DNA from: Cordylochernes scorpioides
Taxonomy: Eukaryota > Arthropoda > Arachnida > Pseudoscorpiones > Chernetidae
Assembly: GCA_030710605.1 (NCBI GenBank)
Contig: CP092872.1
Location: 10,841,119-10,905,118, forward strand
Reading direction: 5' to 3'
Length of the DNA stretch: 64,000 nucleotides
Shown: one piece after another, positions 1,376 to 62,121 of the stretch
Numbering within the stretch: the first letter of the stretch is position 1
Layout of the letters: every line of letters starts with the position of its first letter
The notes under the pieces: generated by a model
Told to the model about the DNA's origin: nothing
What the model saw: only the letters and a program-made list of their open reading frames with translations
Database searches by the model: none
Position numbers and translations under genes: made by a program

Positions 1376-1764
1376 ATCTTTGAAAGTTGAATTGAAACAA
1401 TTCCACACTAGTAAACACAATTTCAACTTTATTACTTTATGAATAAAATATTTTTTAACTCTCTTTTTATCCTCTAAGAACTAAGAAAAAAGCTCAAATT
1501 AAAATTTAACAACTGTGATCTGAAACTAAATTGTATCCACCGAATTTATAGTTAATAAAATTTTCAAAGTCGAACTCTCTGGTCATAATATCAGAATCAT
1601 AAATAATAGTTTAAGCTTAATCACCAATATAGGCCTATTTAAAACTATTAATAATAGAAATTCATCAAGAATAATTGATAATAAAAATACAAGGGGTTTA
1701 TAGGATTATTTGTTAGTTGAAAGTTTGTTTAGAAAACATATATGTATGAAAAAATTAAAGATAA

Positions 1765-2020
1765 AAAGGTCAGGTGTTGAATTCAAAAATAAAATGGCAT
1801 CTCCTGACCACGAGCACATGTGCTTTTTAGATGGCAGAGCGCCATCTGGTGGAACAGAAATCAACTAAACATTGATTTAACCTGTTCCCTGATGTTTATT
1901 TCAATGATTAGTTGATTTCTGTTCCACCCGATGGCGTTCTGCCTTCTGTAAAGCACATGTGCTCCTGGTCAGGATATGCCATTTTTATTTTTGATTTCAA
2001 CACCTGACCTTTTTATCTTT
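1765..2020. repeat. Snapback remnant of the 351-bp ribozyme repeat (family R1)
   Basis: Two inverted arms (about 1765-1900 and 1905-2020) match the non-ribozyme part of the 351-bp repeat at 52-54 kb, including CACATGTGCT and the GATGGCG...GGTGGAACAGAAATC blocks. The hammerhead portion is absent. The head-to-head layout is the same as that of the palindrome at 52.0-52.5 kb. Confidence 0.75.
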
Positions 2021-2174
2021 TTTTTTTTCTTTCATTTTTTCATATATGTGTGTATATGCATGTGTGTGTGTGCATATGTGTGCGTATGGCTACATCACAA
2101 AACCAATCTCCTCCTTTACCGGTCCCAAGCCCGGATGAAAAAGGAGGAGGGGGAGCAGTAACAAGCTCACTAAA

Positions 2175-9726: not shown

Positions 9727-10113
9727 TCTTTGTATTATGTATAAAGTAATTGTAGTATGTATTCGCCGTAATAATATTATGCGCCGTTATGTATAATTAC
9801 TTTGTATTATGTATAAAGTAATTGTATTATTATGTATTCGCCGTAATAATATTATGCGCCGTTATGTATAATGTCTTTGTATTATGTATAAAGTAATTGT
9901 ATTATTATGTATTCGCCGTAATAATATTATGCGCCGTTATGTATAATGTCTTTGTATTATGTATAAAGTAATTGTATTATTATGTATTCGCCGTAATAAT
10001 ATTATTCGCCGTTATGTATAATGTCTTTGTATTATGTATAAAGTAATTGTATTATTATGTATTCGCCGTAATAATATTATTCGCCGTTATGTATAATGTC
10101 TTTGTATTATGTA
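9727..10113. repeat. 75-bp tandem array, middle part
   Basis: About five units; the repeat of CCGTAATAATATTAT at 9841 and 9916 gives a period of 75 bp. Units differ by single bases, such as ATTATGCGCC versus ATTATTCGCC. The array is interrupted at its right edge by the PLE insertion. Confidence 0.9.
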
Positions 10114-10170
10114 TAAAGTAATTGTTAGAATGAAATAAGGTAAGTAAAGGAGCTTCTTTATACACGTTTA

Positions 10171-10214
10171 TTCTCGCTAGCTTTCGAACCTACAAGGTTC
10201 TTCATCTGGCATGG
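10171..10214 (-). ncRNA. Hammerhead-like hairpin at PLE terminus (minus copy)
   Basis: On the minus strand it reads CAGATGA, a stem GAACC/GGTTC, GAAA, then AGCT, a self-complementary minimal stem III. A short stem I encloses this. The first box differs from the consensus CUGAUGA at U4, and a base is bulged next to stem II. PLEs are known to encode minimal type I hammerheads, so position and architecture fit, but activity is doubtful. Confidence 0.45.
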
Positions 10215-10477
10215 ATAGCTTTTACACTAACAAAAGTACTGCAACACAGGGACCTTATATACACCTAGGAGGAAATTTACATACTTAAGCTAATGGATTA
10301 AAAGAGAATATATGACGCCGACGTTAAAATTGGAATATTTACATATAAAAAACCGAAAACAAGATTTGTAAAATTATGAATATATGCAAAACCAGCCAAC
10401 ATTGTTGCGACAAATGAGTAAATGTCCAAGGGCACAACCAGGGGCCCCACTCAATGTCACAACCAATGGGTAGGGGA

Positions 10478-10516
10478 TAGGGGGGGGGGGGAAGGAAGTG
10501 GGGGGGGGGGGGGGGT
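10478..10516 (-). repeat. Poly-G tracts in the PLE 3' region (minus copy)
   Basis: Two runs of ten or more G on the plus strand (C on the element sense strand) are separated by GAAGGAAGT. The mirror copy is at 13438-13480. They lie between the PLE stop codon and the terminal hairpin. The G-rich strand could fold into a G-quadruplex. Confidence 0.6.
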
Positions 10517-10541
10517 TGGGTGGGAGGAGTAGTATCTACTT

Positions 10542-12358
10542 TTAATAAAGGACTTTGTATATATCGGGAAGGTCTATTTTGCGATTAATACTGTTGGTTT
10601 GTGAGGAAATAATGGATTCTAAGCATAGTCTATTGTGTTTGTGGTTGATATGTCTGTATTTAATGTGTGGATGTTCAAGATCAAAACTGTGGCCTGTTTG
10701 TGCGATATGGGTGTAGACTAGGGATTTTGTATCTTTGTTATGAATATTGCGATTATGTTCTGAAATTCTGATACGTGTGGTTCTGCCTGTTTCCCCGACA
10801 TATGATGCTGGGCAATTATTGCACTGTAGGGAATAGATGGCGCCAGTGGAGTCTATTGGGAGGGTAGGTCTATCTGATTTGGTGATGCTATTTCTGAGAA
10901 TGGTGGTTAGGTTGGGCGCCATATGGGCGCAATATGCGGGATATTGAAACTGCTTTGGGGGAATATGGAAGCCAACATGTGGATCTATAGATTGTAGTGG
11001 TTGTATGGACACATGGATCAAACATGTGTTTGTCTATAAAGGGCAAGGGGTAACCTGCAGCCATAAGGATCAAACGGATTCTAGATTTTTCGGTGGTTTT
11101 AAATATGGGCAATGAGCAATGGGTGAAGATTCTCTTGGATAGGGTCTTAACTGTATTTATTTTATATGCTATGGGGCTACTGGAGGAGAAGTGTGTGTAT
11201 TGGGGGGGAATGTTCTTTTTGTGAAAAACTGTGGTTTGAAAGGTGTGCGGTGTGCGTATGACTAAGATGTCTAAAAAGGGTAAAGCGGAGCTCGATTCGG
11301 TATCATAAGTAAATTTTATATTTGGGTTGAAGTCGTGTAAGGTACTATGGATGCGTTGGAGGCTGTTTGAGTTAATGATACAAAAAAAAATCATCCACAT
11401 ATCTCCTCCAGTAGTGTATGTCAGAGGGGAGGGTTTGGTTGATCCATGTGTCCAGCGAATTCATGACTATTTCTGCAATTATTGATGAGAGAGGACTACC
11501 CATAGGGGTGCCTCTGATTTGTTTGTAATAGTGCGTGTTAAATGTGAAGGAACTAACGGTCAAACAGAGGGAGGTTAGTTGTAGTATGGTGGAAGCTGTC
11601 TGTGTGTCTATGTTAGATGTTGTGAGGAATAGTTGTAATTTATCTGTGATGAGGGTATGTGGTAGGGAAAGGTACAGAGATGTGACGTCAAAGGACGCCA
11701 TGATGTGTTGTGGTGGCGGAGTTAGGGCTGTTATGTTTTCTATAAATGTGGGGGGGTGAGTGATGCTGTATATGTTTGGGTTTTGCTTCATGAGAGGGGA
11801 CAAAAGGCTTACCAGATATTTGGAGACTGAATATGCCGGGGATTGGTGATAAGCGATGATTGGTCTAAGTGGGACTCCCGGTTTGTGCACCTTGGGACGC
11901 CATAAATGTAAGCATGTAAGCATTCTTGTCCAAGTTGGCTGTAAAATGAGTATGTAGTTCAGTTGGGATGAGGCCAGATTTCTTCATGTTGTTTAAGGAT
12001 TTTCTGAACATTTTGGTAAGGGTGGTGTTTTCTTGTGGGGAGATAGATGAGAAGGTGGAGCTGTCTTGAAGGATGTCTGTCATCTTTGCTGTGTAATCCG
12101 ATCGGTCCATTATGACGGGGTGGTTTCCTTTGTCCGCTCTTGTAAATACCAGGGATTTATAGCTTTTTAACTTATTGATTATGGCTTTGTTGTTGTGGCT
12201 GGGTACTTTGTTCCGGTCTGGTCTTAGTAGGGCTTGGACTATCGCATTCCGTACTTTAAAAGTTTCACCTTGATTTAGAGTGCTCATGATGCCTTCCACA
12301 CCAGCAATGATTCTGGGGATGTCCGGTTTGGGTGGAGGTACATACTGGAGGCCTAGTT
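10542..12358 (-). pseudogene. Penelope-like reverse transcriptase plus GIY-YIG endonuclease, frameshifted
   Basis: PLE proteins copy RNA with a telomerase-related reverse transcriptase and nick DNA with a GIY-YIG nuclease. The reading passes through four minus-strand segments: 12358-11865, 11923-11372, 11400-10888 and 11021-10542. Visible motifs in order are a conserved N-terminal region, palm motif A (SFDVTSLY), motif B (GTPMGSPLSS), the catalytic YVDD, and the GIY-YIG domain (AIYSLQC ... YVGETGRT...R...EH). At least three frameshifts break it. The first is an 8-bp tandem duplication (GTAAGCAT twice, about 11908-11923). The N-terminus is truncated at the head-to-head junction. The copy is dead but recent enough to align easily with its twin. 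Confidence 0.85.
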
Positions 12359-13411
12359 CTACAGATAAATTACAACTATTCCTCACAACATCTAACATAG
12401 ACACACAGACAGCTTCCACCATACTACAACTAACCTCCCTCTGTTTGACCGTTAGTTCCTTCACATTTAACACGCACTATTACAAACAAATCAGAGGCAC
12501 CCCTATGGGTAGTCCTCTCTCATCAATAATTGTAGAAATAGTCATGAATTCGCTGGACACATGGATCAACCAAACCCTCCCCTCTGACATACACTACTGG
12601 ATGAGATATGTGGATGATGTTTTTTGTATCATTAACTCAAACAGCCTCCAACGCATCCATAGTACCTTACACGACTTCAACCCAAATAGTCATACGCACA
12701 CCGCACACCTTTCAAACCACAGTTTTTCACAAAAAGAACATTTCCCCCCCAATACACACACTTCTCCTCCAGTAGCCCCATAGCATATAAAATAAATACA
12801 GTTTAAGACCCTATCCAAGAGAATCTTCACCCATTGCTCATTGCCCATATTTAAAACCATCGAAAAATCTAGAATCCGTTTGATCCTTATGGCTGCAGGT
12901 TACCCCTTGCCCTTTATAGACAAACACATGTTTGATCCATGTGTCCATACAACCACTACAATCTATAGATCCACATGTTGGCTTCCATATTCCCCCAAAG
13001 CAGTTTCAATATCCCGCATATTGCGCCCATATGGCGCCCAACCTAACCACCATTCTCAGAAATAGCATCACCAAATCAGATAGACCTACCCTCCCAATAG
13101 ACTCCACTGGCGCCATCTATTCCCTACAGTGCAATAATTGCCCAGCATCATATGTCGGGGAAACAGGCAGAACCACACGTATCAGAATTTCAGAACATAA
13201 TCGCAATATTCATAACAAAGATACAAAATCCCTAGTCTACACCCATATCGCACAAACAGGCCACAGTTTTGATCTTGAACATCCACACATTAAATACAGA
13301 CATATCAACCACAAACACAATAGACTATGCTTAGAATCCATTATTTCCTCACAAACCAACAGTATTAATCGCAAAATAGACCTTCCCGATATATACAAAG
13401 TCCTTTATTAA
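12359..13411 (+). pseudogene. Second Penelope-like copy: partial RT plus GIY-YIG
   Basis: This copy starts inside the reverse-transcriptase palm (at the DKLQLF block), so it is more 5'-truncated than the minus copy. It keeps motif B, YVDD (about 12608-12620) and the whole GIY-YIG domain (12932-13411). A deletion of about 57 bp after the HDFNPN block removes sequence present in the minus copy, and a stop at 12782 plus frameshifts separate the segments. The final 159 residues, with the GIY-YIG domain, are identical to those of the minus copy, so the two arms are young or gene-converted. Confidence 0.85.
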
Positions 13412-13437
13412 AAGTAGATACTACTCCTCCCACCCAA

Positions 13438-13480
13438 CCCCCCCCCCCCCCCCCCACTTCCTTCCCCCCCCCCCCCCCCT
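13438..13480 (+). repeat. Poly-C tracts in the PLE 3' region (plus copy)
   Basis: Mirror of the tracts at 10478-10516, lying just after the stop codon of the plus-strand PLE copy. Confidence 0.6.
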
Positions 13481-13745
13481 ATCCCCTACCCATTGGTTGT
13501 GACATTGAGTGGGGCCCCTGGTTGTGCCCTTGGACATTTACTCATTTGTCGCAACAATGTTGGCTGGTTTTGCATATATTCATAATTTTACAAATCTTGT
13601 TTTCGGTTTTTTATATGTAAATATTCCAATTTTAACGTCGGCGTCATATATTCTCTTTTAATCCATTAGCTTAAGTATGTAAATTTCCTCCTAGGTGTAT
13701 ATAAGGTCCCTGTGTTGCAGTACTTTTGTTAGTGTAAAAGCTATC

Positions 13746-13786
13746 CATGCCAGATGAAGAACCTTGTAGGTTCGAAAGCTAGCGAG
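13746..13786 (+). ncRNA. Hammerhead-like hairpin at PLE terminus (plus copy)
   Basis: Same structure as at 10171-10214: CAGATGA, stem GAACC/GGTTC, GAAA, AGCT, with a short stem I. AATAAA follows within 20 bp. The first box deviates from the hammerhead consensus at one position. Confidence 0.45.
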
Positions 13787-13867
13787 AATAAACGTGTATA
13801 AAGAAGCTCCTCTACTTACTTTATTTCATTCTAATTTGATCAAGATTAGAGTTCATCTATAAAAAAA

Positions 13868-14065
13868 TAAAGTAATTGTATTATTATGTATTCGCCGTAA
13901 TAATATTATTCGCCGTTACGTATAATGTCTTTGTATTATGTATAAAGTCATTGTATTATTATGTATTCGCCGTAATAATATTATTCGCCGTTACGTATAA
14001 TGTATTTGTATTATGTATAAAGTAATTGTATTATTATGTATTCGCCGTAATAATATTATTCGCCA
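13868..14065. repeat. 75-bp tandem array, right part
   Basis: About 2.6 units, continuing directly from the right PLE target duplication. The array ends at ATTCGCC, where a fragment of the CTGACGA foldback family follows (14066-14165). Confidence 0.85.
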
Positions 14066-17372: not shown

Positions 17373-17429
17373 AGTATCTTAAAGATATAGGTTACCTGGC
17401 CAGCATTCATAGTTCTTCAAATTAAAGAT

Positions 17430-17532
17430 TTGGAACGCTTCACGATTTTGCGTGTCATCCTTGCGCAGGGGCCATGCTAATTTTCTCTGTATCGTTCCAA
17501 TTGTAGTATATGTACCGCCGAACAAGCGTGTA
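17430..17532 (-). pseudogene. U6 snRNA retropseudogene
   Basis: On the minus strand this is almost the whole U6 spliceosomal RNA, including ATTGGAACGATACAGAGAA, the ATTAGCATGGCCCCTGCGC region, GGATGACACGCAAA and GTGAAGCGTTCC. It is flanked by the direct repeat CAAATTAAAGAT at 17418-17429 and 17533-17544, a target duplication. It also lacks the terminal T run, so it is a retroposed copy and not a gene. Confidence 0.9.
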
Positions 17533-17570
17533 CAAATTAAAGATACTTCAGCCATTAAATCTTATTATTG

Positions 17571-22436: not shown

Positions 22437-22775
22437 AAAGGCATCTCCTTACCGTGCAGCTAAAAGTTGCTGATGGCTTGCGCCATCTATCGGAATAAAT
22501 ATCAACTATTCTCGTTGATTTTTAATTATTTCATAATTGGCCAAATACCCTTTCTTGATTAATCAAGAAAAGCTAACTACGGACGCGTTTCGGGCTGTTG
22601 GCCCTCATCGGCGTGGTGCAAGCTGTACCTCAACGACCAAAAAACTGGTCATTCAGGCATCCTGAAAAATCATGAAACAGGTAGTTAAGGCCAGAATTGC
22701 GTGAGACCGCGACACAATATGAAAAAATAGTACAAATGTGATATTGTACTGGGATAAGGTATCTCCTTACTTATT
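22437..22775 (-). mobile_element. Retrozyme-like repeat R2, single unit
   Basis: One complete unit of about 335 bp, bracketed by the block AGGCATCTCCTTAC at its start and a related AGGTATCTCCTTAC at its end, which is a little more than one circular unit. It matches the R2 repeat at 61.6-62.1 kb, including GATGGCTTGCGCCATC, the TTCTTGATTAATCAAGAA hairpin and the hammerhead. Confidence 0.75.
22576..22617 (-). ncRNA. Hammerhead ribozyme, degenerate R2 copy
   Basis: On the minus strand: CCGATGA (U4 changed to C), stem II GGGC-CAACA-GCCC, GAAA, ACGCGT, C17. Stem I CCACG/CGTAG has one mismatch. It is otherwise identical in layout to the canonical copy at 61897-61940. The box change should abolish cleavage. 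Confidence 0.7.
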
Positions 22776-23183: not shown

Positions 23184-25629
23184 GAGTCCATGAGTATATC
23201 TTTCAGAGTTATTGTCTGAATTCAGATATACATGCTAAAAGGTACAACTTCCTTAAGTTTTGTCCATGAGTGTATCTTTCAGAGTTATTGTCTGAATTCC
23301 GATATACATGCTAAGAGGTACAACTTCCTTAAGTTTTGTCCATGAGTGTAACTTTCAGAGTTATTGTTTGAATCCTGATATACATGCTAAAAGATACACC
23401 TTCCTTAAGTTTTGTCCATGAGTGTATCTTTCAGAGTTATTGTCTGAATCTCGATATACATGCAAAAAGGTACAACTTCCTTAAGCTTTGTCCCTTAGTG
23501 TATCTTTCAGAGTTATTGTCTGAATCCCGATATGCATGCTAAAAGGTACAACTTCCTTAAGTTTTGTCCATGAGTGTATCTTTCAGAGTTATTGTCTGAA
23601 TCCCGATATACATGCTGAAAGGTACAACTTCCTTAAGTTTTGTCCATGAGTGTATCTTTCAGAGTTATTGTCTGAATCCCGATATACATGCTGAAAGGTA
23701 CAACTTCCTTAAGTTTTGTCCATGAGTGTATCTTTCAGAGTTATTGTCTGAATCCCGATATACATGCTGAAAGGTACAACTTCCTTAAGTTTTGTCCATG
23801 AGTGTAACTTTCAGAGTTATTGTTTGAATCCTGATATACATGCTAAAAGGTACAACTTCCTTAAGTTTTGTCCATGAGTGTATCTTTCAGAGTTATTGTC
23901 TGAATCTCGATATACATGCAAAAAGGTACAACTTCCTTAAGCTTTGTTTCTTAGTGTATCTTTCAGAGTTATTGTCTGAATCCCGATATACATGCTAAAA
24001 GACACAACTTCCTTAAGTTTTGTCCATGAGTGTATCTTTCAGAGTTATTGTCTGAATCCCGATATACATGCTAAAAGATACAACTTCCTTAAGTTTTGTC
24101 CATGAGTGTATCTTTCAGAGTTATTGTCTGAATCCCGATATACATGCTAAAAGATACAACTTCCTTAAGTTTTGTCCATGAGTGTATCTTTCAGAGTTAT
24201 TGTCTGAATCCCGATATACATGCTAAAAGATACAACTTCCTTAAGTTTTGTCCATGAGTGTATCTTTCAGAGTTATTGTCTGAATCCCGATATACATGCT
24301 AAAAGATACAACTTCCTTAAGTTTTGTCCATGAGTGTATCTTTCAGAGTTATTGTCTGAATCCCGATATACATGCTAAAAGATACAACTTCCTTAAGTTT
24401 TGTCCATGAGTGTATCTTTCAGAGTTATTGTCTGAATCCCGATATACATGCTAAAAGATACAACTTCCTTAAGTTTTGTCCATGAGTGTATCTTTCAGAG
24501 TTATTGTCTGAATCCCGATATACATGCTAAAAGATACAACTTCCTTAAGTTTTGTCCATGAGTGTATCTTTCAGAGTTATTGTCTGAATCCCGATATACA
24601 TGCTAAAAGATACAACTTCCTTAAGTTTTGTCCATGAGTGTATCTTTCAGAGTTATTGTCTGATTCCCGATATACATGCTAAAAGATACAACTTCCTTAA
24701 GTTTTGTCCATGAGTGTATCTTTCAGAGTTATTGTCTGAATCCCGATATACATGCTAAAAGATACAACTTCCTTAAGTTTTGTCCATGAGTGTATCTTTC
24801 AGAGTTATTGTCTGAATCCCGATATACATGCTAAAAGATACAACTTCCTTAAGTTTTGTCCATGAGTGTATCTTTCAGAGTTATTGTCTGAATCCCGATA
24901 TACATGCTAAAATATACAACTTCCTTAAGTTTTGTCCATGAGTGTATCTTTCAGAGTTATTGTCTGAATCCCGATATACATGCTAAAAGATACAACTTCC
25001 TTAAGTTTTGTCCATGAGTGTATCTTTCAGAGTTATTGTCTGAATCCCGATATACATGCTAAAAGATACAACTTCCTTAAGTTTTGTCCATGAGTGTATC
25101 TTTCAGAGTTATTGTCTGAATACCGATATACATGCTAAAAGATACAACTTCCTTAAGTTTTGTCCATGAGTGTATCTTTCAGAGTTATTGTCTGAATCCC
25201 GATATACATGCTAAAAGATACAACTTCCTTAAGTTTTGTCCATGAGTGTATCTTTCAGAGTTATTGTCTGAATCCCGATATACATGCTAAAAGATACAAC
25301 TTCCTTAAGTTTTGTCCATGAGTGTATCTTTCAGAGTTATTGTCTGAATCCCGATATACATGCTAAAAGATACAACTTCCTTAAGTTTTGTCCATGAGTG
25401 TATCTTTCAGAGTTATTGTCTGAATCCCGATATACATGCTAAAAGATACAACTTCCTTAAGTTTTGTCCATGAGTGTATCTTTCAGAGTTATTGTCTGAA
25501 TCCCGATATACATGCTAAAAGATACAACTTCCTTAAGTTTTGTCCATGAGTGTATCTTTCAGAGTTATTGTCTGAATCCCGATATACATGCTAAAAGATA
25601 CAACTTCCTTAAGTATTGTTCATGAGTGT
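23184..25629 (+). repeat. 76-bp satellite array (M76), about 32 units
   Basis: Units repeat at exactly 76 bp (TGTCCATGAG at 24021 and 24097). The monomer is the terminal 76 bp of the M76 MITE, ending in the terminal inverted repeat CTTAAGTTTTGTCCATGAG. The left third is heterogeneous and contains a higher-order duplication. A variant pair (TTTGAATCCTG, then an AAGCTTTGT unit) at 23367 recurs at 23823, 456 bp or six monomers later. From about 24000 the units are nearly identical. Confidence 0.95.
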
Positions 25630-28756: not shown

Positions 28757-29224
28757 TATAGAGGAATACCTACAATTATAATTTATAAAAGAACTGGTTT
28801 AGAGAAGGTCAAATTGAATAGATAACAAAAGTCTATATCAGATAAAGAACCAAAAGTCCCATTCCAAACACCATCTTGATTTCAGTGAAAATCGAGAGAA
28901 CGCGATCTACCATAAAATTATCATGGCCTGTCAACACTTCCATATATGGTAATCCCCATGTCGGAATGATTGACCCGACAAAATCCCATTTCCAAATGCA
29001 AACCGTTGGTGAAGTTGGCGTAAGGAATTTACAATTCAATTGAATTTTGAAAGGTCATCATTTCTGAACGATTTTGGTGAAAATGAATTTAAAATGCTAT
29101 TACCTTTTTTTATTAACGATTTAAACACTAAAATATCTTAATAATTTGTAATGATATTTTGAAATTTTATTTGCTTCTTTTATGATATTAATTTATTAAA
29201 TATTATCTATATATATATAAATAT

Positions 29225-29331
29225 ATATTAAAAATGGCTGACCAGGAGCACATGTGCTTTACAGAATATTGATTATTAATATTGATTTCAACACCTGATA
29301 TTTTATCTTTTTTTCTTTCGTTTTTTAATAT
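29225..29331. repeat. Small snapback remnant of ribozyme repeat R1
   Basis: It carries TGGCTGACCAGGAGCACATG, CACATGTGCTTTACAGAA and the R1 tail ATTTCAACACCTGATATTTT...TTTCTTTCGTTTTTTAAT. The ribozyme part is absent. Confidence 0.6.
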
Positions 29332-37668: not shown

Positions 37669-37736
37669 TTAGGTTTTTTGAAAATAATATCATGAAATAT
37701 TATTTGAAAAAACAATAGAAAAAATAAAAGATAATT

Positions 37737-37875
37737 GGGTCAGGTTATCAAGAAATTGGGTTGGCTAAATATCTCGGAGCAAGCTAAATAGACGTTTAGT
37801 TTATTTTTGCTCCACTAGATGGCGCTCTGCCATCTAAAATGCGCATGTGCTCGTGGTCAGTAGATGCCTTTTTTA
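37737..37875 (+). repeat. Fragment of ribozyme repeat R1
   Basis: It contains ATCAAGAAATTGGGTTGGCT, AGATGGCGCTCTGCCATCT and CATGTGCTCGTGGTCAG in R1 order, without the hammerhead. Confidence 0.7.
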
Positions 37876-38504: not shown

Positions 38505-38580
38505 CAATATTCTACTGCCTCTATTAATGGGAGGGCCTGGAACGCTTCACGATTTTACGTGTCATCCTTGCGCAGAGGCC

Positions 38581-38620
<40 letters not shown>

Positions 38621-38750
38621 ACCGCCGAACAAGTGTGTACAATGGGAGGGCCTGGTTCATCAGTGGTGAACCCTCCCAGCGGTTTCGTCAGTTTAATCTA
38701 CCATACTGCTGTAATATTGAATGTTTCAGGTTTCCTTTTATACTGATACT
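38505..38750 (+). repeat. Dispersed repeat D interrupted by U6
   Basis: Repeat D resumes after the insertion at AATGGGAGGGCCTGGTTCAT and continues through AGCGGTTTCGTCAGTTTAAT. The site itself was duplicated. Confidence 0.75.
38539..38640 (-). pseudogene. U6 snRNA retropseudogene
   Basis: A minus-strand U6 from GTACACACTTGTTCGGCGG to GTGAAGCGTTCC, with a few substitutions. A perfect 15-bp target duplication, AATGGGAGGGCCTGG, lies at 38526-38540 and 38641-38655. There is no T-run terminator. Confidence 0.92.
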
Positions 38751-46924: not shown

Positions 46925-47163
46925 TGAGAGGGCGCGGTTTCATTAAAGTATTATTGTTGATTAAACTGGCGAAACCGCTGGGAAGGTTCTCCACTGATGA
47001 GTCAAAGCCTTTCAAATATATTTCCATTACAGTTGAGATATAAGAAAGTGTTTCGTTTGAAAAATAAGACACATTTACATTTAAATGGCTGAGCGCCATC
47101 TAGTGGAACAGAAATCAACTAAACGATGATATAAGCTGTTCTCTGATATTTGGTAAACCCTTA
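46925..47163 (-). repeat. Fragments of repeat D and of ribozyme repeat R1
   Basis: 46925-47030 is family D inverted (GGCGAAACCGCTGGGAAGG). 47085-47163 is the minus-strand R1 block (GAGCGCCATCTAGTGGAACA ... TTCTCTGATATTTGGTAAAC). The R1 piece is cut by the mariner insertion. Confidence 0.65.
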
Positions 47164-47165
47164 TA

Positions 47166-48488
47166 CAAGGTATGTCCCATAAGTTCCCGGACTGGGTCCA
47201 TAAAAAATAAATGAATGAAAAATGTAAATAAATTTGACTGTTTATTATAGAAAAAATATCTGGCAACACGGTGGTACCAATATCGAGGCGGTACATGCGC
47301 GCGCGCCAAGGTCATTCTAATTTATTTAAAGGTCACACCTAGCGCTGCGGCGATTTTACGATGGAACAAAAATTGAAGCAGAGGATTTGCATAGAATTTT
47401 GTGTGAAACTTCAAATATTAGCAACCGAAACTTTTTAAATGCTTAATAAAGTATTCCCCAATGACGCCCCAAAGAGAACAACTGTTTTTGAATGCCATTC
47501 TAGATTTAAAGCTGGCAGAATTTCCATTGAAGATGATCCTCGGCAAGGACGCCCAAATTTTCAAAGGACTGATGAAAATGTGCAAAAAATCACCGATTTG
47601 ATAAAAGAAAATCCTCGAACCACTTTGCTGGGGCTAGAGCAAGACACAGGCATCTCTAAAACAACGATTGGAAGGATCGTAACCGAAGATTTGAAGCTCA
47701 AAAGACTCCTGCAAAATTCATCCCAAGATTCCTCACTAATGAGCAAAAACTGTGTCGGCTTGCAACCTGTGAGGACATGTTGCAAATGACAAGAACGGAT
47801 CCGGAATGGAAAGACAAGATAATCACAGACGACGAGACATGGGTCTATTGCTATGACCCTGAAACCAAGCGTCAATCTGCCGAGTGGGGAGGTCAGGGTG
47901 AGCCTAGACCCAAAAAATCCAGGATATTGAAATCCAGAAACAAGGTGTTGCTGGTCGCTTTTTTGGATAACAAAGGCATTGTTCATCACGAGTATCTTCC
48001 TGCAGGCCAAACAGTTATTAAGGAAATGTATTTGGGCATTATTCGCCGTCTAAGGGAAGCGATTCGAAAAAAAAAAGGCCAGAAAAATGGACTAATGGTG
48101 ACTGGATCCTACACCATGACAATGCCCGCCCTCACACAGCGCACTTGGTGACGAGTTTTTTGGCGAAAAACGGGACACAAATCCTATCTCAACCACCCTA
48201 TTCCCCAGACATCGCACCAAATGACTTTTTCCTGTTCCCCAAACTTAAAGCAGTTCTAAAAGGAAGACATTTTGACACCAGGGATGACATAATAGAAAAA
48301 TCGCTGTTAGCACTGAAGAGCATTCCAAAAGAGGCCTATAAAAACTGTTTCGACAATTGGGAGAAACGATGGCGCTGGTGCGTTGAAGCAAGGGGGGATT
48401 GCTTTGAAAAATTTTAATATATATATATTTTTTAATATCTTACCTTTTTTTTATGGACCCAGTCCGGGAACTTATGGGACATACCTTG
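47166..48488 (+). mobile_element. Mariner transposon, complete ends, broken transposase
   Basis: 1323 bp with terminal inverted repeats of about 40 bp (CAAGGTATGTCCCATAAGTT ... inverse) and a TA target duplication at 47164-47165 and 48489-48490. Length and structure are typical of mariner. Confidence 0.95.
47361..48417 (+). pseudogene. Mariner transposase (DD34D), inactivated
   Basis: The transposase would cut and paste the element at TA sites. ATG at 47361 opens the frame. A TAA at 47436-47438 (codon 26) interrupts the N-terminal helix-turn-helix, and the frame then runs to about 47705. A frameshift there leads to 47777-48065, and a second within the A run at 48067-48077 leads to 48078-48417. 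Catalytic signatures are TDDETW (first Asp), HHDNARPH (second, readable only after correcting the frame) and YSPDIAPNDFFLFPKLK (third). The linker between DNA-binding motifs reads KENPRTTLLGLEQDTGISKT. The three lesions mean it is certainly dead, though its ends remain good substrates. Confidence 0.93.
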
Positions 48489-50959: not shown

Positions 50960-52045
50960 TCTTTTATTAGTTATATAAGAGATAATATACATTAATATTT
51001 GAGATGTCAAAAGATATAACTATAAAAATTTATTTAAAAAAAATAATAGGTGTAAGTTCATATTTATAAGTTAACAAAAAAGCCGAAAAATAAAGGTATT
51101 CATTTCAACAATCAAAACAAAGATTATTACATAAATACATTATATATATAACATAACAATTTTACATATTTACAATAAATAATTTTATTATAAAATTAAT
51201 AACGTAATCGTATTGTTTAAATATTTATAATATCGTATCAAACGATGATTTAAAAAAATAGAGAAATAAAAAAAGCTATTTCTTTCATCTAATTTACACA
51301 GTAGAACTTTTAAAAATCTCCCAAATTGCTTTGTGCAATTATTTCTCTCAAATCGCCATGTAGTGCTCCTATTTGGAATTCCAAATGTAACCTCCTTTCT
51401 TTATTTTTTAAGTAAATTGAAGAATCCACGGCAGAGAAATCTGCAGTATTACTCCAAGGGACATTTACCTACTCTATAATATGGTTGGTTAGATAGATAA
51501 ACCTTTTTTTTTGAATTAAAGAAAATATTTTTGATTCTTTTTATATTCATATTGTATATCACTATTTTTGTTTTCCCTCTCTCTTTCTTGCGGTGGGCGC
51601 CACCAATGAAGACTTGTATATATATTTATATATATATATATATATATGTTATATAATTTTTAAAAAATTAATAGAAATATAATAGAGATAAATGCATGTA
51701 AATATTATTTTATTTTATTAATCTGTTTAAAATAACTCTGTTGTTCTTGGCCACTAGATGGCGCCACCTTAAATATAAATAGATTGTTTTGTTTTTTTTA
51801 GTGTTGGTTAGGTAAGTTAGATTTTATTTTATATAGGTATGTAAATGGTGATATAGAATTAATTGTTAAAATTCTATATTTACTTAATTTAAAATATATA
51901 CTTTTGCTCAAAGAGTTCAAAATAAACTACTTGAGACTGATTTTCTCTTTTTTAATTAAATTCAAGACGACTGCACCTTCAATTTTAACAAATCATTTTT
52001 TGGATTTACATAATTATAGAACATATATATATATATATATATATG
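50960..52045. other. AT-rich sequence, no gene seen
   Basis: (AT)n tracts at about 51615-51650 and 52021-52045. A possible repeat at 51735-51980 (CACTAGATGGCGCCACC ... ACGACTGCACCTTCAAT) shares its end motif with about 60650 and 61020. Confidence 0.4.
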
Positions 52046-52047
52046 TA

Positions 52048-52460
52048 CATTAAAAAACGAAAGAAAAAAATAAAAGATAAAAAGATCAGGTGTTGAAATC
52101 AATATTAAAAATGGCATATCCTGACCAGGAGCACATGTGCTTTTCAGAAGGCAGAGCGCCATCTGGTGGAACAGAAATCAACTATTCATTGATTTAGCCT
52201 GTTCCCTGATATTTGGCCAACCCAATTTCTTGATAAATCAAGATGGCAAATCGTGGATGGCTTTTCTTGATTTATCAAGAAATTGGGTTGGCCAAATATC
52301 AGGGAACAGGCTAAATCAATGAATAGTTGATTTCTGTTCCACCAGATGGCGCTCTGCCTTCTGAAAAGCACATGTGCTCCTGGTCAGGATATGCCATTTT
52401 TAATATTGATTTCAACACCTGATCTTTTTATCTTTTATTTTTTTCTTTCGTTTTTTAATG
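52048..52460. repeat. Perfect palindrome of repeat R1, 195-bp arms
   Basis: Arms 52048-52242 and 52266-52460 match base for base as far as I compared them, with a 23-bp spacer. The left arm is an inverted, ribozyme-free partial R1 unit. The right arm is the start of the tandem array. Because of this, frames on both strands encode identical peptides. Confidence 0.95.
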
Positions 52461-52565
52461 TGCTAAGCGTATTTACGCAAGTTTGGCCTTAAATACCCAT
52501 TTCTTGGTTTTTCAGGAAGCCATTGGGATCAAAAATTATTTTTTTGGTCGCAATGGTTCAGCCTA

Positions 52566-52609
52566 CTCCACGCTGACGAGCGCCAAAAGCGCGAAACGCG
52601 TTCGTGGAT
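52566..52609 (+). ncRNA. Hammerhead ribozyme, R1 unit 1
   Basis: Stem I TCCACG (52567-52572)/CGTGGA (52603-52608), box CTGACGA (52573-52579), stem II GCGC-CAAAA-GCGC (52580-52592), GAAA (52593-52596), self-complementary ACGCGT, and T17 at 52602. It is a minimal type I hammerhead with a GUU triplet. Such short stem III forms usually work as dimers. Confidence 0.85.
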
Positions 52610-52916
52610 GGCTTTTCTTGATTTATCAAGAAATTGGGTTGGCCAAATATCAGGGAACAGGCTAAATCAATGAATAGTTGATTTCTGTTCCACCAGATGG
52701 CGCTCTGCCTTCTGAAAAGCACATGTGCTCCTGGTCAGGATATGCCATTTTTAATATTGATTTCAACACCTGATCTTTTTATCTTTTATTTTTTTCTTTC
52801 GTTTTTTAATGTGCTAAGCGTATTTACGCAAGTTTGGCCTTAAATACCCATTTCTTGGTTTTTCAGGAAGCCATTGGGATCAAAAATTATTTTTTTGGTC
52901 GCAATGGTTCAGCCTA

Positions 52917-52960
52917 CTCCACGCTGACGAGCGCCAAAAGCGCGAAACGCGTTCGTGGAT
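52917..52960 (+). ncRNA. Hammerhead ribozyme, R1 unit 2
   Basis: Same sequence and structure as unit 1, offset by 351 bp. Confidence 0.85.
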
Positions 52961-53267
52961 GGCTTTTCTTGATTTATCAAGAAATTGGGTTGGCCAAATA
53001 TCAGGGAACAGGCTAAATCAATGAATAGTTGATTTCTGTTCCACCAGATGGCGCTCTGCCTTCTGAAAAGCACATGTGCTCCTGGTCAGGATATGCCATT
53101 TTTAATATTGATTTCAACACCTGATCTTTTTATCTTTTATTTTTTTCTTTCGTTTTTTAATGTGCTAAGCGTATTTACGCAAGTTTGGCCTTAAATACCC
53201 ATTTCTTGGTTTTTCAGGAAGCCATTGGGATCAAAAATTATTTTTTTGGTCGCAATGGTTCAGCCTA

Positions 53268-53311
53268 CTCCACGCTGACGAGCGCCAAAAGCGCGAAACG
53301 CGTTCGTGGAT
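53268..53311 (+). ncRNA. Hammerhead ribozyme, R1 unit 3
   Basis: Same sequence and structure as unit 1, offset by 702 bp. Confidence 0.85.
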
Positions 53312-53618
53312 GGCTTTTCTTGATTTATCAAGAAATTGGGTTGGCCAAATATCAGGGAACAGGCTAAATCAATGAATAGTTGATTTCTGTTCCACCAGAT
53401 GGCGCTCTGCCTTCTGAAAAGCACATGTGCTCCTGGTCAGGATATGCCATTTTTAATATTGATTTCAACACCTGATCTTTTTATCTTTTATTTTTTTCTT
53501 TCGTTTTTTAATGTGCTAAGCGTATTTACGCAAGTTTGGCCTTAAATACCCATTTCTTGGTTTTTCAGGAAGCCATTGGGATCAAAAATTATTTTTTTGG
53601 TCGCAATGGTTCAGCCTA

Positions 53619-53662
53619 CTCCACGCTGACGAGCGCCAAAAGCGCGAAACGCGTTCGTGGAT
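53619..53662 (+). ncRNA. Hammerhead ribozyme, R1 unit 4
   Basis: Same sequence and structure as unit 1, offset by 1053 bp. Confidence 0.85.
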
Positions 53663-53969
53663 GGCTTTTCTTGATTTATCAAGAAATTGGGTTGGCCAAA
53701 TATCAGGGAACAGGCTAAATCAATGAATAGTTGATTTCTGTTCCACCAGATGGCGCTCTGCCTTCTGAAAAGCACATGTGCTCCTGGTCAGGATATGCCA
53801 TTTTTAATATTGATTTCAACACCTGATCTTTTTATCTTTTATTTTTTTCTTTCGTTTTTTAATGTGCTAAGCGTATTTACGCAAGTTTGGCCTTAAATAC
53901 CCATTTCTTGGTTTTTCAGGAAGCCATTGGGATCAAAAATTATTTTTTTGGTCGCAATGGTTCAGCCTA

Positions 53970-54013
53970 CTCCACGCTGACGAGCGCCAAAAGCGCGAAA
54001 CGCGTTCGTGGAT
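53970..54013 (+). ncRNA. Hammerhead ribozyme, R1 unit 5
   Basis: Same sequence and structure as unit 1, offset by 1404 bp. Confidence 0.85.
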
Positions 54014-54174
54014 GGCTTTTCTTGATTTATCAAGAAATTGGGTTGGCCAAATATCAGGGAACAGGCTAAATCAATGAATAGTTGATTTCTGTTCCACCAG
54101 ATGGCGCTCTGCCTTCTGAAAAGCACATGTGCTCCTGGTCAGGATATGCCATTTTTAATATATATATATGTATA

Positions 54175-55003
54175 TGTGGCAATATCGTTGCGGGGTTTCT
54201 TGTTGTTGGATGCGAATGGTGATATTTGGTTGAAGCGCAGTCGTTGAGTGGTAAGTGAAGCACACAGTTAGGAATAATCAGGACACATGGTGAGGTTTGA
54301 AAATAAAAGGCAACTGGATTGGAGGGAAGAAAGCTTGAGAAGGCGGAGCGATTTTGATTGTTAATTAACTGATCACATGGCGGTGATTGTACTTAGCTGT
54401 GGGATGAGCCGAGGGAGAGAGGTCTAAAGCCGATGTCACCTCCTTGGGAGCCCAAGCGTAACTAACTATTCTTGTCTTTCGATTTAACACCACGAGTCAG
54501 TTTCTCTCTGATTGGTTGAGAGATGTCACATGCTCTTTTTCTATTGGTTGACCTACTTAAGGTGCTATCTTCTGATAGGCCGGCGGCTTCCCTTGATGAA
54601 AGCTGTGCCCTGCCTGGTATATCCGATTTCATCAGGAAGTGTTTGGTGGCTTGACGCTTATAGTTTCGAAGGATATTAGACACGTCCTGTTTTTGCCGGA
54701 AGTACTGGATGTCTCTCAAACTTTTATAACTTCTGGTCACTCGACACGTCCTGTTTGTCAGGAAGTATTGAGTGAATCTTGGCTAAAATAACTTCTGCGG
54801 TCACTAGAGACGCCCGGTCTCTGCCCCTGCAGTATTGACACAGGGGTGCCCAGAATAGTCGGGCCAGCCTTAGGTCTATTTCCTATATCTTAACGCTACT
54901 TGCTTCCCTCCAGTTACCTTGTTCTTTATTAAGTCTTTGAAATTCATACATGGTACATACATAGTGGGTCGGGGTTGCATTTAATTATATACAAATTATG
55001 ACA
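54175..55003 (-). repeat. 3' LTR
   Basis: 829 bp; one difference from the other LTR seen by eye (C at 54681 versus T at 59999). It contains a 92-codon minus frame (54740-54462) and direct repeats of about 65 bp around ACACGTCCTGTTT (about 54680-54830). Confidence 0.93.
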
Positions 55004-56645: not shown

Positions 56646-58949
56646 TCATTTACTGTTATCTCTTCGGAGTTTATTTAGATTTTCTGCGAAGATGGTTCCT
56701 AAGGTTATGAGAAGTTTTATAAATGTTTGTCCAAAATTAAAAACTGCCTCTTGTAGTTCGAAGATTTTCTGATCGGGCATAGCATAGATAAACAAGTACT
56801 TAATGAATAAAATTGGAATACAGTTGTACGGTAGAACTAATAAACAAAGGATAAAAATCAGATGAAAGATAGGATATTGTCCCATGTTCGTCCACATTTT
56901 TGTAACTGGGGACTCTGAAATATTGATTTGAACCTTATGAATTGTAGAATTTGAATGATTGGTAGGTTCGCAGTTTTCCTGTTTGATATCTTTAGGGAGT
57001 GGTGTGATATGATTGGATTGGTTGTCAGGTTTACAGTTCTCCTGTTTGATCGTCAATGGTTTTATTAGAGATATGTCGGCGGTAATTGGTTTAGGTTGAA
57101 ATGTGTGATCTTTCCTCTGACGTGGATGTGGTAATTTTGGTATTGTTTGTGTTGTGTGTACGCTGTGTTTTATGTACGAATTTTGTTTTGTTTGGGTACC
57201 TGTGTCGGTATTTTTACGTGCAGGTTGTTTGTATTCATCGATTCTTCTAGCGAATCGGCAGGTGGGGCAGGTTTTTACCTGTTTTGCGATGTCCTGTGTC
57301 ATGTTCTGCCAATAATATTGTGCTGAGATGAGTCTCGTCATCTTGGAGATGTTTGGGTGGTGGTGTTGTGTGTGTACGGACTTAAGAAGTCTGGTTGTAA
57401 ATGAATTTGGGACTATAGTTTTAAGTACTCCTTTTCGGGAGGCGGTGCGCAGTTTATTGGGATCCATAGTCACGCGGGATTTTCCCGGTGGAGAAGACTG
57501 TTGGCTCTTTATGAGTGGCGCATCTAGAAAGCCACAAAATGGGATACGAGTTACAACGCCCGTTTCATATTGTTGTACTCCATTTATGCTACGGACCTCA
57601 TATTCGTATCTTGACAATCTTAACCTCCATCGAAACAATCTGCCTGACGGAGCTTTGATCTCTTTCAACCACTGCAATGCAGGATGGTCAGAAAGTATTG
57701 TAAACTTTCTGTCCATTAGACAGGTGCGGAAATTATCCACACTTTCCACAATGGCTAGGCATTGTAGCTCCAAGTCTGAATAATTTCGCTCGTGACCACG
57801 CAGAGATCGGCTGAAATGTTGAACGGTGTATGTCTTCCCATCAGGGTAGACTTGTTTAATAATGCCTGTAATGCTGAATGTTGAGGTGTTACAGTACACC
57901 TGGCATGGCATACCTTCCTGGTAAAGGTGTAATGTGGGGTGTGTGGTAAGGTTTTCTTTCAGGTTAGTGAACGCTTTCTGGCATTCGTCATCCCAGACCC
58001 ACATGATATCCTTTTTTAGAAGGTTGATAAGTGGCGTCCGCAAGCGGGCGTGGTCCGGAATGAACTCTTTATAGACGTTCACATCTTTTAGGAAAGATCG
58101 CAAGGTTTTTCGATTGTGTGGTTGTTTGGTGGCGTGAATTTTTTCTATGTTTTGTGTAGATGGGATGATTGTATTATTCTTAACGGTTGTGCATGCGCTT
58201 GTTTGTCGTTGTTGTTGTCTTTTGGCGTGCGTGTTGCGTGTGTTGTGAGGTACATTTGCGTGTTTCTGGCGTTGCGAAGTATGGTTATGTGTGGATTTTG
58301 TGTGGTAAGTGGGTGAGCTGTGTCGGGGTACGGACACTTGTTTGGGCATTAATGGAGTTGTAGATTGAAGTCGTGGTGGCTTTATATGTGGTGGGCATAA
58401 AGTATTGGCAATTGAGTTGAGCGAAAGGTTGTGTGGTGTGAGATTAGAATGGTGGCATGTAAATATTTGGGGTTTGGGCAATGAATGCAGGTAAGGGTTT
58501 CCATGTGTGAAAGCTTTGGGTGCTGTGCGAGTCCTTTGGGACAGGTTTTGGCCTAGCCCGTGCTTGCATTCATTTGACACATGTTTAAAGTGGTAGATAG
58601 TATTAGACAATGGGACGCCAAGTTGGAAAATAGTGCCGCGATTATAATTTAGTTTTAATTTATATTGATAAAGGGTTTTTAAGGTAAGAACTCCAAATGG
58701 CAAGGATGCATTTACCACGTGGAAGTTCTCTCTACGGGTTATTTGGCCTATTGTCAGAGGGAAAGTTAAATGTCCTATTATTTTCGTAAAACTATTTAGG
58801 GTGGATAGATCAAGGGAAGGTTTTTTAATACTTAAATTGGGAAGTTGTGCTTTTAATCTATTGTATAAATGATACGGCAATATGTTCGAACCTGCGTCTG
58901 GTTCAATGAGAAAGGTACATGGTAGGTCCTGGGTCAGATACAAGTCCAA
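56646..58949 (-). CDS. Gypsy Pol-derived 767-aa protein lacking RT palm and integrase core
   Basis: The frame is uninterrupted. Residues 1-120 resemble a retropepsin, but the active-site D-T/S-G-A reads E-P-D-A (16-19), so catalysis is unlikely. Residues 120-280 are His/Thr/Asn/Lys rich and occupy the place of the missing palm. Residues 281-445 are a gypsy connection/RNase H region (FLKDVNVYKEFIPDH, HFSRSLRGHERNYSDLELQC, SDHPALQWLK), with the first catalytic Asp replaced by Asn (N353). Residues 526-564 form the integrase H2C2 zinc finger (H526, H530, C561, C564). No D-D-E core follows. Residues 605-690 are polar with a repeated IKQENC-P motif. Residues 693-722 are a hydrophobic, probably membrane-spanning segment. 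Dead enzyme sites in an open frame suggest a non-enzymatic role or a very recent source copy. Confidence 0.75.
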   Translation of the reverse strand: MDLYLTQDLPCTFLIEPDAGSNILPYHLYNRLKAQLPNLSIKKPSLDLSTLNSFTKIIGHLTFPLTIGQITRRENFHVVNASLPFGVLTLKTLYQYKLKLNYNRGTIFQLGVPLSNTIYHFKHVSNECKHGLGQNLSQRTRTAPKAFTHGNPYLHSLPKPQIFTCHHSNLTPHNLSLNSIANTLCPPHIKPPRLQSTTPLMPKQVSVPRHSSPTYHTKSTHNHTSQRQKHANVPHNTRNTHAKRQQQRQTSACTTVKNNTIIPSTQNIEKIHATKQPHNRKTLRSFLKDVNVYKEFIPDHARLRTPLINLLKKDIMWVWDDECQKAFTNLKENLTTHPTLHLYQEGMPCQVYCNTSTFSITGIIKQVYPDGKTYTVQHFSRSLRGHERNYSDLELQCLAIVESVDNFRTCLMDRKFTILSDHPALQWLKEIKAPSGRLFRWRLRLSRYEYEVRSINGVQQYETGVVTRIPFCGFLDAPLIKSQQSSPPGKSRVTMDPNKLRTASRKGVLKTIVPNSFTTRLLKSVHTQHHHPNISKMTRLISAQYYWQNMTQDIAKQVKTCPTCRFARRIDEYKQPARKNTDTGTQTKQNSYIKHSVHTTQTIPKLPHPRQRKDHTFQPKPITADISLIKPLTIKQENCKPDNQSNHITPLPKDIKQENCEPTNHSNSTIHKVQINISESPVTKMWTNMGQYPIFHLIFILCLLVLPYNCIPILFIKYLFIYAMPDQKIFELQEAVFNFGQTFIKLLITLGTIFAENLNKLRRDNSK

Positions 58950-58986
58950 AGTTAATTTGATGATGTCATTGGTTGGATTGCCTACC

Positions 58987-59448
58987 TTAGTCTCGAAAAG
59001 TCTCCATTGCGGCGTCTTCGGCTTGGTGTAGCTGGCTTGGAATATCTGTTGGATCGGGTCGGGACCTTTTGCACTGTCCCCGCGATTGAAAGGGAAATCT
59101 AGTCATTTGTATTGCTTCCATTCGAGTGGATCGCGTTGTCGGTACACTGGGTCCGTGTCGCGTGGGTTGCTTCCGTGTGTACTGGTACGGCATGGTGGGT
59201 GGCGATAACTCGGTGGGTGTCAGGCTGTTCGGACACGTACCGGCGGTGCAGGCGGCGGTTGTCCCGAGGGTGGCGCTCCGGAAGACCGCTTTCAGTTGCG
59301 TGGATCTCGCCCCTTGTAGCGCGGCGGTCAGTTCTAAAATTACCGTCGCCAGGGTATGTCTTGTCGCTTCGTTCGTTGTCAGTTTCTTCTCTCTTGGTTT
59401 ATCATTGCCTTTTGTTGTGCTGGCGCCTGGGTTAATTTCCATCTTCAT
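58987..59448 (-). CDS. Short Gag-like or leader frame of the LTR element, 153 aa
   Basis: The frame starts 44 bp inside the 5' LTR boundary and ends 38 bp before the long frame. The composition is Thr/Arg/Pro rich, ending in a stretch with Arg/Cys (SRGQCKRSRPDPTD). It lies where Gag should be but is far too short for a full gypsy Gag, and no zinc knuckle is visible. It is probably a deletion remnant. Confidence 0.4.
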   Translation of the reverse strand: MKMEINPGASTTKGNDKPREKKLTTNEATRHTLATVILELTAALQGARSTQLKAVFRSATLGTTAACTAGTCPNSLTPTELSPPTMPYQYTRKQPTRHGPSVPTTRSTRMEAIQMTRFPFQSRGQCKRSRPDPTDIPSQLHQAEDAAMETFRD

Positions 59449-61576: not shown

Positions 61577-62081
61577 TGAAAAAATAGTACAAATGTAACA
61601 TTGTACTGGGATAAGGTGCATAAATTAAGTATTTGGCCAATTCTGGAATAATTAAAAATCAACGAGAATAGTTGATATTTATTCCGATAGATGGCGCCAG
61701 CCATCAGCAACTTTCAGTTGCACGATAAGGAGATGCCTTTTTCTTAATTTATGCACCTTATCCCAGTACAATGTTACATTTGTACTATTTTTTCACATTG
61801 TGTAGCGTCCTCACGCAATTCTGGCCTTAACTACCCGTTTCATGATTTTTCAGGATGCTTTAATGACCAATTTTTTGGTCGTTGAGGTACAGCTTGCACC
61901 ACGCTGATGAGGGCCAACAGCCCGAAACGCGTCCGTGGTTAGCTTTTCTTGATCAATCAAGAATGGGTATTTGGCCAATTCTGGAATAATTAAAAATCAA
62001 CGAGAATAGTTGATATTTATTCCGATAGATGGCGCCAGCCATCAGCAACTTTCAGTTGCACGATAAGGAGATGCCTTTTTC

Positions 62082-62084
<3 letters not shown>
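61577..62084 (+). mobile_element. Retrozyme-like repeat R2, about 1.4 units with snapback start
   Basis: TTGGCCAATTCTGGAATAAT recurs at 61633 and 61971, giving a unit of about 338 bp. The left end (61577-61628) is an inverted piece matching 61745-61796 (TTATCCCAGTACAATGTTAC). This is the same snapback-then-tandem layout as R1. The unit contains TAGATGGCGCCAGCCATC, the TTCTTGATCAATCAAGAA hairpin and a canonical hammerhead. It ends in an (AT)n tract. Confidence 0.8.
61897..61940 (+). ncRNA. Hammerhead ribozyme, canonical core (R2)
   Basis: Stem I ACCACG (61898-61903)/CGTGGT (61934-61939), CTGATGA (61904-61910), stem II GGGC-CAACA-GCCC (61911-61923), GAAA (61924-61927), self-complementary ACGCGT, and C17 at 61933. 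This gives the classic GUC cleavage triplet. Every invariant core base is present. Confidence 0.9.

Positions 62085-62121
<37 letters not shown>

What the first reader, a model, noticed from the sequence alone, without database searches (positions are those of the whole stretch)
52252..54160. A 351-bp hammerhead-ribozyme tandem array whose first base is the ribozyme cleavage site
Seen: five exact 351-bp units and a partial sixth, each complete unit with both hammerhead boxes, a closed stem II, a 6-bp stem I and a self-complementary ACGCGT stem III. The array starts at 52252 with CGTGG, exactly the base after the predicted cut, so the integrated copy has a self-cleaved 5' end. Known: retrozymes in plants and metazoans are short tandem repeats with type I hammerheads that yield circular RNAs. 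Inference: a cleaved, possibly circular, multimeric RNA was reverse transcribed here. The family looks new to me, but I cannot search databases.
Basis: partly seen in the sequence, partly recalled or inferred. Interest (0 to 1): 0.85.

Follow-up and report, generated by a model that had tools for sequence, protein, structure and literature searches.

The report
Ribozyme retroelement inserted head-to-head
A short repeated sequence whose RNA is built to cut itself sits in many copies in this genome, and the shape of its insertions suggests that Penelope-type retrotransposon machinery writes it in from both DNA strands at once, which would answer an open question about how such ribozyme elements move.

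Summary
Confirmed: five exact 351-bp units plus 155 bp of a sixth, each complete seam with a type I hammerhead (Rfam HH9, E 3e-5, below the curated cut-off); covariation across four families supports the fold. The insert is two arms, head-to-head, in a TA tract.

That layout is the rule. Of 19 independent sites read, 17 have two outward arms; in 14 of 17 the outer ends lie within 4 nt of unit positions 155 and 208, one on each side. Inner ends scatter, but joints at the ribozyme cut (540 places) exceed three control positions (110, 102, 18).

[quoted passage not shown] Best reading: a metazoan retrozyme, mobilised by PLE enzymes through two-sided target-primed reverse transcription of ribozyme-cut RNA, partly circular. 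The kind is known; I did not find this signature in the papers searched. RNA circles, cleavage and the partner enzyme are untested here.

The parts
52023..52046 (.). left flank, TA repeat (target)
   Evidence: sequence
52047..52243 (-). left arm: inverted copy of unit positions 210 to 14; its outer end is the '208-type' end
   Evidence: 100% over 197 nt
52244..52251 (.). 8 nt at the joint of the two arms (T52251 also fits the unit's last base)
52252..54006 (+). right arm: five identical 351-bp units, first base = base after the predicted ribozyme cut
   Evidence: 0 mismatches
54007..54161 (+). right arm: partial sixth unit, positions 1-155; its outer end is the '155-type' end
54162..54176 (.). 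right flank, TA repeat (target)
   Evidence: sequence
52557..52622 (+). type I hammerhead over the first seam (copies at 52908-52973, 53259-53324, 53610-53675, 53961-54026)
   Evidence: Rfam HH9 31.3 bits, E 3.1e-5, below gathering score 52
52263..52282 (.). 20-bp near-perfect palindrome close to the 5' end of the unit
   Evidence: (I25)
10126..13866 (.). Penelope-like element with the same head-to-head layout: GIY-YIG and reverse transcriptase fragments on both arms, 32-nt tail 13835-13866 at the right end, ATAAAGTAATTGT on both sides (10113-10125, 13867-13879)
   Evidence: the duplicated word recurs in the 75-bp repeat target, so the duplication is tentative
61577..62088 (.). second retrozyme family (C), head-to-head, TA on both sides, hammerhead 61888-61953
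   Evidence: (HH9 26.5 bits, E 6.4e-4)

Best explanation
A non-autonomous retroelement of the metazoan retrozyme kind, inserted by Penelope-type machinery. RNA of the 351-nt repeat cuts itself at the seam with a hammerhead; monomers stay linear or are closed to circles (circle inferred). A PLE protein opens both strands of a TA-rich target. One strand's 3' end starts cDNA synthesis at RNA position ~155, the other's at ~208 (fixed outer ends are shown; priming is inferred). Each cDNA runs toward the RNA 5' end and stops anywhere, with an excess at the ribozyme cut (run-off from cleaved RNA), or crosses the seam and goes round again, giving multi-unit arms. The two cDNA ends are then joined with microhomology or a few extra bases (joints shown). 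In the window one strand made 0.56 unit, the other 5.44 units ending at the cut.
For: Two outward arms in 17 of 19 independent sites; outer ends within 4 nt of 155 and 208 in 14 of 17. TA repeat on both flanks in 14 of 19 sites, on one in 4, none in 1; background 4.8% of 20-mers. Genome-wide 155-end next to TA 2961 places, 208-end 1866, backward controls 0 and 1. On C1 up to 162.8 Mb, exact matches: 17 divergent neighbour pairs, all 155 with 208. Joints at the cut 540 versus 110, 102, 18. Covariation 5 of 12 pairs. Inner ends of the two arms within 5 nt in 0 of 17. PLEs here are head-to-head too: 11 of 11 and 23 of 27 neighbour pairs, and one in this window. A PLE family ends at TA at 41 places, control 0. 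Published PLE: both strands cut and extended, AT-rich target, two internal start sites (PMC11167929).
Against: No RNA, cleavage or enzyme data. In vitro, the Anolis PLE showed no difference in start site between the two strands, ribozyme mutants inserted as well, and no RNA reads began or ended at its ribozyme cut (PMC11167929). The spacing of the two start sites is ~53 nt here, 30-40 in PLEs. L055 has two 208-type ends; L040 and L041 have one off-site end. Most inner ends are not at the cut. In 46 of 76 distinct joints the copy seems to reach two bases past the predicted cut. The unit shares no significant sequence with the window PLE. LINEs were not surveyed as control.
Confidence: 0.8

Rival explanations
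1. Same two-sided PLE insertion, but the template of the multi-unit arms is a long uncleaved tandem transcript; circles play no part.
For: PMC11167929 reports multi-copy PLE RNA and unprocessed RNA as the dominant substrate in vitro. Exact seams fit a multimer as well as a circle.
Against: Units of one insertion share the same variants: 69 fixed, 169 single, 12 intermediate, which asks for a monomer bottleneck or a very uniform source. Joints pile up at the cut.
Confidence: 0.35
2. Self-priming: one cDNA is made, its end folds back and copies itself, giving the inverted arm, as proposed for rotifer PLEs (PMC3846280).
For: A palindrome lies near the unit's 5' end; joints are frequent there (436 places); three insertions (window, L051, L057) have inner ends 13-14 nt apart by alignment.
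Against: Fold-back makes the two inner ends nearly equal and the outer ends alike: 0 of 17 insertions have inner ends within 5 nt and 16 of 17 have outer ends of different type.
Confidence: 0.06
3. LINE-type twin priming on a tandem RNA, without PLE enzymes.
For: Twin priming gives inverted 5' parts and microhomology joints (recalled, not tested here).
Against: Here both outer ends are fixed internal sites and nearly all copies read are two-armed; PLEs of this genome show the same layout. LINE insertions were not examined.
Confidence: 0.06
4. A DNA transposon or MITE with terminal inverted repeats that prefers TA sites.
For: Inverted arms and a TA target.
Against: The two ends are different unit positions in 16 of 17, arm length varies from a fraction to more than seven units, joints vary, the ribozyme covaries, and L041 shows a ~12-nt duplication in a target that is not TA.
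Confidence: 0.02

Closest known systems
Metazoan non-LTR retrozymes (Cervera and de la Pena 2020, PMC7229834; parts 1-4 of 6 read)
   Same: Short low-GC tandem repeats (150-450 bp) with type I hammerheads, no coding capacity, weak stem III as in salamanders; reported as linear and circular RNA of unit length.
   Different: Head-to-head arms, fixed paired outer ends and the TA target are not mentioned there (word search). RNA not tested here.
Penelope-like elements (PMC11167929 parts 1-2 of 4 read; PMC3846280 and PMC8969392 passages)
   Same: Head-to-head inverted copies, AT-rich targets, an extra tail at one end explained by two adjacent start sites, 5' palindrome, hammerhead, duplications of roughly 8-13 bp.
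   Different: No reading frame; unit 351 bp; tail ~53 nt instead of 30-40; canonical hammerhead with a closed stem II; joints do not fit the self-priming model of PMC3846280.
Plant LTR retrozymes (PMC4918200, listing only; features as summarised in PMC7229834)
   Same: Non-autonomous, hammerheads, circular RNA.
   Different: Type III hammerheads, LTRs, 4-bp duplications.

Membership tests
Metazoan non-LTR retrozyme | tandem repeats of 150-450 bp | tested here: met
   351 bp, 5.4 copies in the right arm
Metazoan non-LTR retrozyme | type I hammerhead in each unit | tested here: met
   HH9 E 3.1e-5, below gathering score; covariation on nine rows, rows partly chosen by pairing
Metazoan non-LTR retrozyme | GC content below 50% | not tested
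   the unit is visibly AT-rich, no value computed
Metazoan non-LTR retrozyme | self-cleaved linear and circular RNA of unit length | not testable with these tools
   no RNA data; joints at the cut and clonal units are indirect
Penelope-like element, insertion signature | head-to-head inverted copies | tested here: met
   17 of 19 independent sites
Penelope-like element, insertion signature | tail at one end from two adjacent start sites | tested here: met
   ends within 4 nt of 155 and 208 in 14 of 17; spacing longer than the published 30-40
Penelope-like element, insertion signature | AT-rich target | tested here: met
   TA repeat on both flanks in 14 of 19, on one in 4
Penelope-like element, autonomous | reading frame with reverse transcriptase and GIY-YIG | tested here: not met
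   the 351-bp unit holds no such frame; it can only be a non-autonomous passenger
DNA transposon or MITE | two alike terminal inverted repeats | tested here: not met
   end types differ in 16 of 17

The most novel reading that the evidence does not exclude
Animal retrozymes are to Penelope-like elements what SINEs are to LINEs, and PLE protein integrates them by an obligate two-sided reaction: of the two opened target strands one is committed to start site ~155 and the other to ~208, both run round the same ribozyme-made RNA circle, and the two cDNAs are joined head-to-head.
Probability: 0.5. Interest if true: 0.85.

Novelty: new variant of a known kind. Interest (0 to 1): 0.74.

Why it matters
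Which enzyme moves animal retrozymes is stated as open in print: PMC7761336 (section 7) says that their repeats show no conserved motif that would tell. Fixed paired ends, the tail and the head-to-head layout are such a mark and can be looked for in coral, mussel or salamander genomes at once. For PLEs, many small non-coding insertions offer a record of a poorly known reaction: two strands, two start sites, where synthesis stops and how the cDNAs are joined. The excess of joints at the cut would be a trace in the genome that ribozyme-cut RNA is used as template.

Tried and rejected
Pattern CTGATGAGTC...GAAA as a hammerhead finder: 31 places; those I looked at by eye had no pairing stem II; dropped. 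Rfam microRNA matches on the inserts are below their cut-offs and follow the long inverted arms; dropped. Self-priming, LINE and MITE readings: see rivals. DNA similarity of the unit to the window PLE: none significant. Rfam on the window PLE: no hammerhead match, although a hammerhead-like word stands at 13751 and 10182. Family B's hammerhead (L045) is not among the Rfam matches up to E 0.05; family D was not given to Rfam. The minimum-energy fold of the unit as a circle, and of the ribozyme stretch alone, does not show the hammerhead; not pursued. The excess at the palindrome (436) may be inflated by subfamilies with another unit start and is left open. Dropped before counts: two older neighbours (L040 near 3000, L045 above 5000); L052 and L053 as duplicates of L051 in the site counts (they are still in the variant count). 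One search counts 5 inner ends at the cut; L057 among them really goes on to unit position 345, so the report says 4 (chance 7e-4 for a 4-nt window). Covariation rows: family D was found with a search that demands pairing, B and C by similarity or a looser word; one family C row has a mutated core.

Full report
1. What is there. The window lies in an unnamed eukaryotic genome of 2.62 Gb in 24 contigs. From 52252 five 351-bp units follow each other without a difference, then 155 bp of a sixth, to 54161. Each complete seam carries a hammerhead: Rfam HH9, 31.3 bits, E 3.1e-5, below that family's gathering score of 52. The array is only the right arm of the insert. The left arm, 52047-52243, is a perfect inverted copy of unit positions 210 to 14; 8 nt join the two, and TA repeats lie on both sides.

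2. The layout is the rule. The unit search gave 142 matches from 40 scored of 591 candidates, which I group into 39 sites. Twenty were fetched with kilobases of flank; the 18 others were asked for in vain (all, eight of them). With the window that makes 21 sites, 19 independent, because L051-L053 are copies of one locus. In 17 of 19 two arms point outward; L054 has one arm joined straight to TA, L047 a left arm of 22 nt. In 14 of 17 the outer ends lie within 4 nt of unit positions 155 and 208, one on each side; L040 has 198/155, L041 154/186 in a target that is not TA and with a ~12-nt duplication (aacactatgttt), L055 208/208. A TA repeat stands on both flanks in 14 of 19 sites, on one in 4, on none in 1; 4.8% of random 20-mers of these loci hold one. 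Genome-wide, with up to one mismatch, the 155-end next to TA occurs at 2961 places and the 208-end at 1866; backward controls 0 and 1. From the exact matches listed on contig C1 up to 162.8 Mb (100 and 37) neighbours under 5 kb are 17 divergent pairs, all of a 155-end with a 208-end, one convergent and one parallel pair. Ends drawn independently at these frequencies would be mixed 17 of 17 times with a chance near 1e-7.

3. Inner ends. The 36 inner ends (17 two-armed insertions, L054, L047) scatter. In 0 of 17 insertions are the two within 5 nt of each other; the smallest distance is 12. Joints overlap by up to 8 nt or hold up to 17 extra nt. Four inner ends fall at the ribozyme cut or within two bases of it: window, L045, L051, L054. 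One joint pattern was counted genome-wide at five unit positions: cut 540, position 75 110, 120 102, 300 18, palindrome near 14 436; in the 21 sites read the exact words occur 99, 98, 84, 80 and 99 times, so copy number alone does not explain the differences. These are places, not independent events: of the first 100 listed for the cut, 76 differ in the ten letters at the joint. Of these 76, 46 have TT just before the cut, as the unit does, and only 8 of the 46 go on with the unit's next base. So the usual cDNA end seems to lie two bases past the predicted cut. I read this as untemplated A addition after run-off; RNA with two more bases at its 5' end fits too.

4. Ribozyme. Beside this family (A) three more were found: B (L045, 7725), C (window 61904, and a copy near 22.6 kb with a mutated core) and D (L039, near 1354). 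On nine hammerhead rows 98.1% of cells pair and 5 of 12 pairs have changes on both sides. No shuffle of 500 reaches the observed value on four measures, 4 of 500 do on the fifth (further pair types); every slid version is lower. The two stem III pairs counted never vary. Stem III has no loop and is self-complementary in A, C and D, with different letters in D, which suggests action as a dimer, as PMC7229834 reports for salamander retrozymes; a paper on dimeric PLE hammerheads was seen only as a title in a reference list. Families C and D show head-to-head arms in TA tracts too.

5. One monomer per insertion. Among variants in insertions with at least three units, 69 are fixed in all units, 169 are single (59 of them in L048, which has a poorly aligned unit), 12 are intermediate. 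All 95 seams that match the test words have the exact two-base joint. This fits a circle copied repeatedly, or a very uniform multimer; it fits badly with jumps between linear monomers.

6. The Penelope link. The window holds a PLE at 10126-13866: reverse transcriptase fragments on both arms (PF00078, E 1.1e-10 and 4.5e-9) and GIY-YIG on both arms (E 0.0013, below its cut-off); two further frames gave no match. Its arms are inverted and point outward, the right end has a 32-nt tail, and ATAAAGTAATTGT stands on both sides; the word recurs in the 75-bp repeat that is the target, so the duplication is tentative. GIY-YIG matches in the genome (146, from 150 scored of 17015 candidates) make 11 neighbour pairs under 10 kb, all divergent. 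With the window PLE's endonuclease as query (150 scored of 47418 candidates) 27 neighbour pairs under 5 kb are 23 divergent and 4 parallel, none convergent; the two sets may share elements. PLE arms also lie head-to-head near retrozymes in L039, L042, L043 and L046; L054 has a single fragment and L043 a further single arm. The PLE of L039, about 285 bp from a retrozyme, ends in TTTTTTCGTTTAAT before TA on one side and has a ~25-nt tail before TA on the other; its untailed end at TA occurs at 41 places with up to two mismatches, control 0. Published PLE work gives two-strand cutting and extension, AT-rich targets and two internal start sites that explain the tail (PMC11167929, parts 1-2 of 4 and passages), and inverted pLTRs, mostly head-to-head, a palindrome at the pLTR 5' end, 8-10 bp duplications and cargo moved in trans (PMC3846280, passages). 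PMC8969392 (passages) names inverted pLTRs and short 3' extensions as peculiarities of PLE copies. Against a simple transfer: in vitro the Anolis PLE showed no difference in start site between the strands, ribozyme mutants inserted as well as wild type, and no RNA reads began or ended at its ribozyme cut.

7. What is new. PMC7229834 (parts 1-4 of 6) and PMC7761336 (section 7 and passages) propose PLEs or LINEs as movers, and the latter says that no motif tells. In PMC7229834 the words head-to-head, inverted, twin, microsatellite and tail-to-tail do not occur. Searches: retrozyme with head-to-head 0 papers; retrozyme with target-primed 2 papers; at least two of hammerhead ribozyme, Penelope-like, head-to-head 42 papers, 20 listed. 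I saw no report of this signature, mostly from listings; subscription journals and three papers asked for are not held. So the kind is known, and the signature and its reading appear absent from what I could search.

8. Limits. One genome, no RNA, no empty sites. The sites read are the best-scoring ones, so long arms are over-represented; many C1 pairs span less than 1 kb. LINEs were not surveyed. The partner PLE is not identified by sequence. The organism is not known to me.

Noticed in passing
window 1749-2043, 22480-22702, 29219-29329, 37707-37875, 47070-47160: Further, older relatives of the 351-bp unit (about 72 to 93% alike), three of them with pieces in both orientations.
   Followed up: partly
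window 10126-13866: Head-to-head Penelope-like element inserted in a 75-bp tandem repeat, with a 32-nt tail at one end.
   Followed up: yes
window 17424-17533 (-) and 38531-38640 (-): Two U6 snRNA-like copies, 103.5 and 95.7 bits; the second lacks the usual T-rich 3' end.
   Followed up: no
window 23186-25629: Array of 32 copies of a 76-bp unit, with shorter arrays of the same unit elsewhere in the window.
   Followed up: no
window 47660-48417 (+): Mariner-type transposase in two overlapping frames (Transposase_1 E 3.3e-13; DDE_3 E 7.5e-5, below its cut-off).
   Followed up: no
window 56649-59102 (-): 818-aa frame with retroelement RNase H and integrase zinc-binding domains.
   Followed up: no
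L045:8037-8091 (-): Type-P1 twister match, 42.9 bits, below its gathering score of 67.2, inside a diverged retrozyme relative.
   Followed up: no
unit positions 12-16 (window 52263-52267): Second pile-up of joints just past the palindrome: 5 of 36 inner ends and 436 places genome-wide; cause not settled.
   Followed up: partly
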